Shown: in pieces, positions 17,705-19,259 of the stretch
Position numbering within the stretch: position 1 is the stretch's first letter
Layout of the letters: each line of letters begins with the position of its first letter
NCBI GenBank assembly: GCA_002428805.1
Contig: DIXX01000047.1
Location: 71,319 to 95,358, forward strand
Source of the DNA: Cetobacterium sp. UBA6069
Lineage (GTDB): Bacteria; Fusobacteriota; Fusobacteriia; Fusobacteriales; Fusobacteriaceae
Direction of reading: 5' to 3'
DNA length: 24,040 nucleotides
Notes under the pieces: generated by a model
The model's database searches: none
The model's input: the letters and a program-made list of their open reading frames with translations, nothing else
What the model was told of the DNA's origin: nothing
Translations under genes and position numbers: made by a program

Positions 17705-17733
17705 TTTACAATTTTATTTTTTTGCTGTATACT
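17705..17733 (+). promoter_or_regulatory. Promoter of the YjiH leader transcript
   Basis: TTTACA (17705-17710), a 17-base spacer and TATACT (17728-17733) predict a transcription start near 17740. That lies about 200 bases before the start codon, so a long leader is made. Confidence 0.65.
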
Positions 17734-17739
17734 AAGCTA

Positions 17740-17873
17740 ACAATTTAAACAGAGGTTAGTTCACTTATATGTTTTGAGCCTAAGGCCGATGGCGATGACG
17801 ACATGTTCCTGTGAATTAAGTATTACGAAGCTGCCATAGTAATACGCTTAATAATATAAGTTCTCAATTCAGG
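17740..17873 (+). ncRNA. Candidate structured regulatory leader (riboswitch-like), class not recognised
   Basis: This region is clearly richer in G and C than its flanks. An outer helix is ACTTATAT (17763-17770) with ATATAAGT (17854-17861), plus GAG/CTC beyond an internal loop. Inside is a 12-bp hairpin, ATTAAG-TATTAC (17815-17826) with GTAATA-cg-CTTAAT (17839-17852). Its loop contains GCCAT (17833-17837), which can pair with ATGGC (17789-17793) as a pseudoknot. A small GCC-TAA-GGC hairpin (17778-17786) lies between them. The bases GAATTAAGTAT (17813-17823) can alternatively pair with AATTC (17866-17870) and ATACTT (17875-17880), which would break the terminator. I see no signature of TPP, SAM, FMN, purine, lysine, glycine, cobalamin, c-di-GMP, M-box, guanidine or T-box elements. 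Confidence 0.6.
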
Positions 17874-17898
17874 CATACTTTTTTAAGTATGTTTTTTT
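17874..17898 (+). terminator. Intrinsic terminator at the end of the leader, before the YjiH gene
   Basis: CATACTT (17874-17880), a TTTT loop, AAGTATG (17885-17891) and then T7. It stands 39 bases upstream of the start codon in the same direction, so it acts as an attenuator for the downstream gene, not as the end of the preceding one (which is on the other strand). Confidence 0.8.
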
Positions 17899-17936
17899 AT
17901 TTGGCAGAAATTTTAAAAATTTCTGGAGGTTTTATA

Positions 17937-19259
17937 ATGGCAATACTAAAATTTGGTATTTATTCTTTAATAGGACTATTAGCGTTTCTAGCTCCTATTT
18001 CAATCGGTGGTGAATCATCTATTATAATGGGTCACCTAAAAAACTTCGTTCTTAACAACTATTCAAGTTGGGTGAACTTCCTAATAATGTTCTGTTCTAC
18101 ATTAACAATAGCTGGAACAATTTTAGGTTTTGTAAAAAAGAACTTTAAAGAGCAATACTTAAACGACCTTTTCGTGACTGATAAGCTTAGTGGTGTTTTA
18201 AGAATTGGTGGATCTTTAATGTTCATAATGATTTCTCTTGGAGTTGCTCCTGAATTCTTAAGCAACGAGAATACTGGTGGATTAATGGCTGGGGATATGA
18301 TTCCTCCTCTTATGGTTACTTTCTTTATAGGTGTTATGCTAATGCCACTACTTACATCATTTGGACTTGTAGAATTTATCGGAACACTGATTGCTCCAAT
18401 CATGAGAAAAGTATTCAAAGTACCTGGATATGCTGCTATTGATGCTCTTGCTTCATTCTTAGGAGATGGTACAATTGGTATCGTTGTTACAGATCAACAA
18501 TACCAAAAAGGATACTATACTCAAAGAGAAGCTGCTGTAATCGCAACATCATTCTCAATCGTTGGTATTTCATTTGCTGCTGTTGTTGCAGATTTATTAA
18601 AGTTTTCTAAAATTTTCTGGGTATTCTATGGAACGATAGCTTTCTCAACTATAATCGCTGGATTTATTATCGCTAGATTACCGCTAAAGAAATTTAAGAA
18701 TGAGTATTTCGAAGGAAATAAAGTTGACGATAATGGAGCTAAAAGTTTTGCAGACGCTTTACATCTAGCTACATCAACTGCTGGAAAAGCATCTGAAAAA
18801 GAGATTGTTGTAGATTCTCTATTCAAAGTTTTAGTTATCTACATAACATTTATTCCAGTTATTATGTGTGTTGGTTCTATCGGATTAGTTATTGCTGAAA
18901 ATACAAGCTTCTTCAATATCTTATCTATGCCTTTAATGCCAATTTTAAAAATGCTTGGATTCTCACAAGAGGTTGCGTCTCAAATGGCTCCGGCTATGAT
19001 AGTTGGATTCTCTGACATGTATTTACCAGCTCTTTTCATAGAGAACACTACAAGCGAAGTTGCTAGATTTATTGTTGGAACTTTATCATTTGCACAATTA
19101 ATATTCCTAAGTGAAACTGGTATGATACTTGTTAACTCTAAAATGGGATTCTCTATCTTAGATGTTGCTAAATTCTTTATCCTAAGAACAATAATTACAT
19201 TCCCAGTTATATACGCAATTGCTATGACACTTGTAAAATTTGGAATTTTATCATACTAA
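17937..19259 (+). CDS. YjiH family inner-membrane protein (nucleoside-recognition Gate domain)
   Basis: This polytopic membrane protein of 440 residues has about 10 hydrophobic segments. It belongs to the YjiH group, which carries Gate (nucleoside recognition, SpmA/FeoB-like) domains. Recognisable parts are L-A-P-I-S-I-G-G-E-S-S-I-I-M-G-H near the N-terminus, the first Gate region around T-L-I-A-P-I-M-R-K-V-F-K-V-P-G-Y-A-A-I-D-A-L-A-S-F-L-G-D, and the second around M-P-L-M-P-I-L-K-M-L-G. It is probably a transporter of unknown substrate. The ATG at 17937 has a GGAGGT site; the in-frame ATG at 17889 lies inside the terminator hairpin and is rejected. It is the only gene under the leader RNA, so the leader's ligand is likely its substrate or a related metabolite. 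Confidence 0.87.
   Translation: MAILKFGIYSLIGLLAFLAPISIGGESSIIMGHLKNFVLNNYSSWVNFLIMFCSTLTIAGTILGFVKKNFKEQYLNDLFVTDKLSGVLRIGGSLMFIMISLGVAPEFLSNENTGGLMAGDMIPPLMVTFFIGVMLMPLLTSFGLVEFIGTLIAPIMRKVFKVPGYAAIDALASFLGDGTIGIVVTDQQYQKGYYTQREAAVIATSFSIVGISFAAVVADLLKFSKIFWVFYGTIAFSTIIAGFIIARLPLKKFKNEYFEGNKVDDNGAKSFADALHLATSTAGKASEKEIVVDSLFKVLVIYITFIPVIMCVGSIGLVIAENTSFFNILSMPLMPILKMLGFSQEVASQMAPAMIVGFSDMYLPALFIENTTSEVARFIVGTLSFAQLIFLSETGMILVNSKMGFSILDVAKFFILRTIITFPVIYAIAMTLVKFGILSY

What the first reader, a model, noticed from the sequence alone, without database searches (positions are those of the whole stretch)
17740..17936. Riboswitch-like leader of unrecognised class controlling a YjiH-family transporter
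A good promoter (17705-17733) starts a ~200-base leader with a branched fold, a possible loop pseudoknot (ATGGC 17789-17793 with GCCAT 17833-17837) and an intrinsic terminator (17874-17898) just before the gene. GAATTAAGTAT (17813-17823) can either form the long inner hairpin (partner 17839-17852) or pair with AATTC plus ATACTT (17866-17880), which would destroy the terminator. These are mutually exclusive, the logic of an OFF switch where ligand binding stabilises the aptamer and allows termination. I could not match it to any riboswitch class I know.
Basis: partly seen in the sequence, partly recalled or inferred. Interest (0 to 1): 0.72.

Follow-up and report, generated by a model that had tools for sequence, protein, structure and literature searches.

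The report
Likely arginine-sensing RNA switch family
A short folded RNA in front of a transporter gene turns out to be one of 45 related copies in Cetobacterium and a few related bacteria, in front of arginine-linked genes and transporters, so it is probably a new kind of RNA switch that senses arginine or a close relative of it.

Summary
The leader at 17740-17936 is real and not unique. The own genome has 4 copies; a covariance model finds 45 copies in 17 of 98 phylum genomes, all in one family, 40 of them in the window's genus, Cetobacterium. No Rfam family matches. The 45 copies (35 distinct) share a six-helix fold: 19 of 31 pairs change on both sides in at least one copy (alignment fitted to the model); an unguided alignment of 32 agrees (98.1% of cells paired). 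Two loops are nearly invariant and a k-turn signature is present. A terminator follows in 43 of 45. First genes: YjiH transporters 22, AstE/AspA-like enzyme 9, NhaC-like antiporter 8 (argH next in 7), YfcC 4, argH 1; one contig ends first. ArgR was not found in 61 family genomes. In sister genera a YjiH relative sits in arg operons with Arg-rich leader peptides. Best reading: a new riboswitch class, probably an arginine OFF switch; ligand and polarity are inferred.

The parts
17705..17733 (+). sigma-70-like promoter TTTACA-17-TATACT
   Evidence: 10 of 12 matches; similar boxes are visible by eye upstream of many other copies in the printed flanks
17752..17865 (+). aptamer-like structured RNA, closed by P1 (17752-17755 GAGG with 17862-17865 UCUC)
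   Evidence: covariance model R1, 130.5 bits at 17751-17867 (the window's copy is in the training set); 2 of 4 P1 pairs change on both sides, 94.5% of cells paired
17759..17816 (+). P2: 17759-17764 with 17811-17816
   Evidence: 4 of 6 pairs change on both sides, 99.5% of cells paired in 32 sequences
17768..17805 (+). P3: 17768-17771 with 17802-17805
   Evidence: 3 of 4 pairs change on both sides, 98.4% of cells paired
17776..17798 (+). k-turn signature: GA at 17776-17777, P4, then three-base bulge 17794-17796 and GA at 17797-17798
   Evidence: columns 26, 27 and 48 invariant in 45 of 45, column 47 G in 43 of 45; k-turn consensus recalled
17778..17793 (+). P4 (17778-17780 GCC with 17791-17793 GGC) with nearly invariant loop UAAGGCYGAN (17781-17790)
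   Evidence: one both-side change (G-C to A-U in L105) supports P4; one sequence breaks one pair
17820..17845 (+). P5 (17820-17826 with 17839-17845) with loop GANGCUGCCAUA (17827-17838), GCUGCCAUA invariant in 32 of 32
   Evidence: 4 of 7 pairs change on both sides, 100% of cells paired; loop counts
17847..17860 (+). P6: 17847-17850 with 17857-17860
   Evidence: 3 of 4 pairs change on both sides, 93.8% of cells paired
17871..17900 (+). intrinsic terminator, stem-loop 17871-17894 plus U-run
   Evidence: present in 43 of 45 copies
17937..19259 (+). YjiH-family membrane transporter (Gate/nucleoside recognition domain, PF07670), SD GGAGG at 17925-17929
   Evidence: the PLSDB table names the Cetobacterium somerae gene behind the matching leader 'YjiH family protein'

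Best explanation
17752-17900 is a member of a cis-regulatory RNA class of Fusobacteriaceae that I found described nowhere, most likely a riboswitch that binds L-arginine (or a direct arginine-pathway metabolite) and switches transcription off. Steps SHOWN by computation: the RNA is a conserved six-helix fold with a k-turn signature between P3 and P4 and two nearly invariant terminal loops (L4 UAAGGCYGA, L5 GCUGCCAUA), followed by an intrinsic terminator, in front of argininosuccinate lyase, basic-amino-acid-type and ion-coupled-type transporters, and a secreted-looking AstE/AspA-like enzyme. Steps INFERRED: the k-turn folds P4 back so that L4 docks on L5 (GGC with GCC); arginine in the junction or loop interface stabilises P1; stable P1 lets the terminator that follows form, so uptake and synthesis stop; without ligand the P5/L5 strand or another part competes with the terminator's 5' arm.
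For: 4 copies in the own genome; 45 copies in 17 of 98 phylum genomes. A wide score gap with model R2, which was built from these copies: weakest member 81 bits, next match 27.9. Covariation: 19 of 31 pairs with both-side changes, 0 of 500 shuffles reach the score, slid controls 35-45% of cells paired against 95.8% (alignment fitted to the model); unguided MAFFT alignment of 32: 98.1%, 17 pairs (3 of its 31 pairs are the invariant docking pairs). Terminator in 43 of 45. First genes of 45 copies (names): YjiH 22, AstE/AspA-like 9, NhaC-like 8, YfcC 'putative basic amino acid antiporter' 4 (two seen only as their first codons), argH 1, and 1 whose contig ends. argH follows the NhaC-like gene in 7 of 8. 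All 7 argH genes found in the 12 Cetobacterium genomes lie in such units. ArgR model TIGR01529: 0 of 61 family genomes, 9 of 14 controls. A YjiH relative (46% identical in G058) lies in arg operons in 3 sister genomes, and those operons carry Arg-rich leader peptides (resampling control). Lysine is sensed separately: lysine riboswitches over the cut-off in 12 of 12 Cetobacterium genomes.
Against: No ligand binding or expression data. The competing fold is not settled: the terminator 5' arm pairs with L5/P5 in 8 of 8 YjiH-2 sequences, but in the other 24 of 32 distinct sequences it pairs elsewhere (P3 strands in L077, L072, L105; mixed in L104) or mostly stays free, 0.13 for the window. L4-L5 docking is invariant, so covariation cannot test it. 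The RNA is absent at argH in the one g2 and the two g5 genomes scanned there (L191-L193), and five of seven g5 genomes have YjiH without it. Methionine-related genes neighbour some copies (methionine gamma-lyase before YjiH-2 in L068; a homocysteine S-methyltransferase two genes from YjiH-1 on the other strand in C. somerae), and PAS-regulator and 2-oxoacid oxidoreductase genes follow YjiH-2 in some. Substrates of YjiH, the NhaC-like and the AstE-like proteins are unknown. Four YfcC copies lack recognisable P1/P2.
Confidence: 0.5

Rival explanations
1. A riboswitch of the same architecture but for another ligand: ornithine, citrulline, another cationic amino acid, methionine-related compounds, or Na+/H+ (the transporters look ion-coupled).
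For: YjiH, NhaC-like and YfcC substrates are untested; the NhaC-like protein resembles Na+/H+ antiporters; methionine gamma-lyase and a homocysteine S-methyltransferase lie near some copies.
Against: argH lies in a leader-run unit in all 7 Cetobacterium genomes in which argH was found, which does not fit an ion or methionine ligand; the two methionine genes named are not downstream of the leader; lysine has its own riboswitch in the same genomes.
Confidence: 0.25
2. A structured leader read by a protein (for example an arginine-responsive or k-turn-binding protein) rather than by a metabolite directly.
For: k-turns are often protein sites (recalled); the absence of ArgR leaves room for another protein.
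Against: Conservation sits in two loops and a complex fold, as in metabolite aptamers; no protein partner was looked for.
Confidence: 0.15
3. An attenuator with an arginine-rich leader peptide, or a tRNA-sensing T-box.
For: The six arg operon upstream regions that I scanned, the Cetobacterium SBP-argG operon among them, each hold an SD-preceded short ORF with 2 to 7 arginines.
Against: Only 6 of 45 copies of the RNA hold any SD-preceded ORF of six or more codons and none printed has more than one arginine; no Rfam family matched.
Confidence: 0.04
4. An ordinary AT-rich leader whose fold and terminator are chance or unconnected.
For: The single-sequence fold is only mildly unusual (z -1.99).
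Against: 45 dispersed copies with covariation and nearly invariant loops.
Confidence: 0.02

Closest known systems
Lysine riboswitch (L box, RF00168)
   Same: Senses a basic amino acid and controls its uptake and synthesis genes (recalled); recalled architecture includes a kinked P2 arm and a P2-P3 loop-loop contact, which the inferred L4-L5 docking resembles.
   Different: No Rfam match of the leader to it; 120 against 182 model positions; lysine riboswitches over the cut-off occur separately in 12 of 12 Cetobacterium genomes.
trpB motif (SRC-39-1, PMC11109978; passages and part 1 of section 11 read)
   Same: A riboswitch candidate of Firmicutes and Fusobacteria, most often before an ABC transporter of amino-acid type, with a terminator.
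   Different: Described as at least two hairpins, one like a terminator, with over 900 members; argH, NhaC and YfcC do not occur in that paper's main text. Its alignment was not available here, so identity is not formally excluded.
Arginine leader-peptide attenuators of arg operons
   Same: argH and a YjiH relative in sister genera appear to be under Arg-codon leader peptides.
   Different: The new RNA has no conserved ORF; its conservation is in structure and loops.
Proposed fungal arginine riboswitch (Aspergillus arginase mRNA)
   Same: Arginine as presumed ligand.
   Different: Eukaryotic, and judged to lack sufficient support in PMC10043782 (passage read).

Membership tests
Riboswitch (as a kind) | Conserved complex structure supported by covariation | tested here: met
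   counts are sequences, not independent events
Riboswitch (as a kind) | Lies in 5' leaders of functionally linked genes | tested here: met
   argH and amino-acid-type transporters; some gene functions unknown
Riboswitch (as a kind) | Expression platform next to the aptamer | tested here: met
   terminator in 43 of 45
Riboswitch (as a kind) | Mutually exclusive alternative (antiterminated) fold | tested here: inconclusive
Riboswitch (as a kind) | Direct, specific ligand binding that changes expression | not testable with these tools
   needs probing and reporter assays
Lysine riboswitch RF00168 | Match to the covariance model | tested here: not met
   no match; the model does find other copies in the same genomes
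Any other Rfam 15 family (4227 models) | Match to a covariance model | tested here: not met
   0 at gathering score in the whole window; none near its gathering score at E up to 10; TPP riboswitches were found in other loci by the same scan
Leader-peptide attenuator | Conserved SD-preceded short ORF with the regulating codons | tested here: not met
   6 of 45 copies have an SD-preceded ORF of six or more codons, none printed with more than one arginine
trpB motif | Match to its published alignment | not tested
   the alignment is in supplementary files, which were not readable here; text description differs
k-turn | Three-base bulge followed by tandem G-A/A-G between two helices | tested here: met
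   sequence signature in 43 of 45; consensus recalled; three-dimensional kink not tested

The most novel reading that the evidence does not exclude
The first natural bacterial arginine riboswitch: a compact k-turn and loop-docking aptamer that in Cetobacterium and close kin took over arginine control of argH and several transporters, in a family where no ArgR was found and where arg operons elsewhere appear to use arginine-codon leader peptides for the same genes.
Probability: 0.45. Interest if true: 0.88.

Novelty: new variant of a known kind. Interest (0 to 1): 0.76.

Why it matters
Of the encoded amino acids only glycine, lysine and glutamine were named as having riboswitches in a 2017 abstract (PMC5584792, start of abstract seen in the listing); my searches of the held library found no bacterial arginine riboswitch. 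A small RNA that selects the guanidinium side chain of arginine would be a new recognition problem with an obvious test set (arginine, ornithine, citrulline, lysine, agmatine). It would also help explain how a family without ArgR controls arginine uptake, and would give the YjiH, NhaC-like and YfcC transporters a predicted substrate.

Tried and rejected
Pattern hits outside the group: Ruminococcus L117 lies inside a 398-aa reading frame and the model does not match there; viral L122 scores 15.0 bits, E 0.21, and is rejected on the score alone (no reading frame of 100 aa covers it). Members at YjiH of other genomes or at arg loci of other genera: none with R1, filters off, at 12 YjiH loci (in one, L133, the contig begins 43 bases before the gene) and 15 arg loci (best 17.8 bits). 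A second model that includes the divergent YfcC copies found no further clear member in 40 genomes (weak matches of 28 bits and less not followed up). Arginine deiminase as a partner: 0 of 61 over the cut-off, 4 weak matches. Phage and plasmid collections: no phage; two Cetobacterium somerae records at 97%. YjiH literature: 2 papers hold YjiH, transporter and arginine; in the one opened, only a table row. Leader-peptide search: 1 paper, listing seen. Not done: trees to count independent changes; a covariance-model search outside Fusobacteriota; any structure prediction of proteins.

Full report
WHAT IS THERE. The window lies in genome G000 (1.73 Mb in 97 contigs, 67.5% complete). Downstream of a sigma-70-like promoter at 17705-17733 runs a leader to the YjiH gene at 17937. 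The fold of 17740-17936 is -43.5 kcal/mol, z -1.99, with 5 of 200 shuffles as good. Taken alone that is weak evidence.

IT IS A FAMILY. A DNA search of the own genome gives four copies: the window, and places on contigs C84, C10 and C23. A search of 61 family genomes finds matches in 17. I aligned 25 distinct copies, built covariance model R1 and searched 98 genomes of the phylum: 45 copies in 17 genomes of 4 genera, all in one family, 40 of the copies in the window's genus (strict filters, which can lose weak matches). All 45 were re-found in fetched DNA. A wider model, R2, built from the 45, re-found 43 in 40 genomes (a set without G002 and G033, one copy each) and no new clear one; its weakest member scores 81 bits and the next match 27.9. 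An exact two-loop pattern over genome contigs gave 14 stretches: 12 Cetobacterium, 1 Fusobacteriaceae, and 1 Ruminococcus that lies inside a 398-aa reading frame. A viral scan gave one hit, 15.0 bits, E 0.21, which I reject on the score. No Rfam family matches (window at gathering score: 0; relaxed: none near its gathering score).

STRUCTURE. RNAalifold on the first alignment gives P1 to P6 with 17 of 31 pairs changed on both sides in at least one sequence. On the 45-copy alignment fitted to the model (35 distinct): 95.8% of cells paired, 19 pairs with both-side changes, covariation score 0.354 against 0.164 in shuffles (0 of 500 reach it), and 35-45% of cells paired when partners are slid. 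On an unguided alignment of 32 distinct sequences, without the four YfcC copies (three distinct rows) which I left out as too divergent: 98.1% paired, 17 of 31 pairs with both-side changes; 'further pair types' was not unusual there (50 of 500 shuffles reach it). These counts are sequences, not independent events. L4 (UAAGGC, then C in 30 and U in 2, then GA) and L5 (GCUGCCAUA) are otherwise invariant in 32 of 32. P3 and P4 are joined by a k-turn signature: GA before P4, three variable bases after it, then GA (column 47 is G in 43 of 45, the other three positions are invariant in 45 of 45); the k-turn consensus is recalled. GGC of L4 can pair with GCC of L5, but both are invariant, so docking is an inference.

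PLATFORM. 43 of 45 copies have an intrinsic terminator by my scan, starting between 2 bases inside and 6 bases past the end of the model in the main types and 21-22 past it in the YfcC type; of the other two, one (L102) has, by eye, a mismatched stem and one contig ends. When the RNA is folded only up to the terminator's 5' arm, that arm pairs with L5/P5 in eight of eight YjiH-2 sequences (0.58-0.78); of the other 24 distinct sequences it pairs with P3 strands in L077 (0.75), L072 (0.58) and L105 (0.49) and with mixed partners in L104 (0.54), and is 0.37 or less in the rest, 0.13 in the window. So the competing fold is not settled.

GENES. First genes of the 45 copies: YjiH type 1 in 14, YjiH type 2 in 8, NhaC-like in 8, AstE/AspA-like in 9, YfcC in 4 (two only as first codons before the contig ends), argH in 1; for one (L104) the contig ends after 29 bases, and a YjiH gene begins 44 bases into another contig of that genome, which may be its continuation. 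Names, each from one representative: argH TIGR00838 601 bits; YfcC 'putative basic amino acid antiporter' 741 bits; the NhaC-like protein has no NCBIfam family over its cut-off, its best partial matches being a tetracycline-efflux Na+/H+ antiporter model (Tet(35), 130 bits against a cut-off of 750), NhaC and ArcD, while Pfam gives Na_H_antiporter over its cut-off; AstE_AspA_cat for the AstE-like protein, which looks secreted by eye. argH follows the NhaC-like gene in 7 of 8 (the eighth contig ends). argH was found in 44 of 61 family genomes; in the 12 Cetobacterium genomes 7 have it and all 7 are in units led by this RNA, as is G047's. At 15 arg loci of other genomes scanned with filters off no copy was found. 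YjiH type 2 in the own genome is followed by a binding protein whose best model is the lysine/arginine/ornithine type, under its cut-off (148 against 256 bits). In five other genomes (L068, L071, L075, L085, L087) two similar genes follow, named in L068 as a PAS-domain protein and, further on, 2-oxoacid oxidoreductase; in L068 a methionine gamma-lyase gene precedes the leader.

WHY ARGININE. Four lines. First, argH is the last step of arginine synthesis. Second, ArgR is not found in 61 of 61 family genomes at E 0.001, though the same search finds it in 9 of 14 controls. Third, in three sister-genus genomes (G052, G053, G058) a YjiH relative lies within 5 kb of argH in what reads as one operon with an ABC transporter and argG. 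argG was named by model in G058 and by eye in the other two; ornithine carbamoyltransferase was named in G053; a binding protein of G058 is best matched by the lysine/arginine/ornithine model, under its cut-off. The YjiH match in G052 has one in-frame stop. Fourth, six of six arg operon upstream regions that I checked (five genera, with Cetobacterium SBP-argG among them) hold an SD-preceded short ORF with 2 to 7 arginines; ORFs as Arg-rich appear in 0.1% to 6.8% of first-order resamples of each region. So argH and a YjiH relative appear to be arginine-controlled by another device next door. Lysine is unlikely as ligand, since lysine riboswitches over the cut-off occur at other loci in 12 of 12 Cetobacterium genomes. 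Ornithine, citrulline and argininosuccinate stay open.

LITERATURE. Full-text searches: riboswitch with YjiH (0 papers); 'arginine riboswitch' (1, a magnesium-chelation paper, listing seen); riboswitch with Cetobacterium (3, listings seen); riboswitch candidate with Fusobacteri (12, listings seen); novel classes with arginine (4); argH with riboswitch and Fusobacterium (1, passages read); YjiH with transporter and arginine (2; passage of one read); leader peptide with arginine biosynthesis (1); arginine-sensing with riboswitch (6, the listed abstracts mostly on c-di-GMP). What I saw of these describes neither this RNA nor a bacterial arginine riboswitch. Of the closest surveys I read passages of PMC8632094 and of PMC10043782, and passages plus part 1 of section 11 of PMC11109978. 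The library holds open-licence papers only, and supplementary alignments were not readable.

VERDICT. Real, not matched by Rfam, narrow in distribution, and structurally rich. I hold it very likely a cis-regulatory RNA class (about 0.95), likely a metabolite riboswitch (about 0.75) and about even odds that arginine is the ligand.

Noticed in passing
L183, L184, L185, L200, L201, L204 upstream regions of arg operons: Short ORFs with 2 to 7 arginines and Shine-Dalgarno-like sites precede arg operons in six of six regions checked; in the three I read (L183, L201, L204) an apparent terminator follows, by eye. This suggests arginine-codon attenuation in a family in which no ArgR was found (resampling control, 0.1% to 6.8%).
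   Followed up: partly
L080:265-376, L076:134-252, L069:6465-6583, L072:6527-6645: Four YfcC leaders keep the k-turn arm, both loops and P5 but lack recognisable P1 and P2; by eye their promoter places the likely transcription start close to P3, so they may be a shortened variant with different logic.
   Followed up: partly
window 17902-17929: A second hairpin (AGAAAUU/AAUUUCU type) directly before the Shine-Dalgarno is visible by eye in many YjiH-1 leaders and might affect translation or mRNA stability (sequences).
   Followed up: no
G000:C36:72972-74376 (L204, L209): A lysine riboswitch sits between argG and a gene that looks by eye like aspartate kinase, so lysine and arginine control elements are neighbours.
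   Followed up: no
NZ_CP092520.1 and NZ_CP143320.1: In two C. somerae strains the leader of the window type lies on records of 0.66 and 0.70 Mb in the plasmid collection; the one opened is titled 'plasmid unnamed1'.
   Followed up: no
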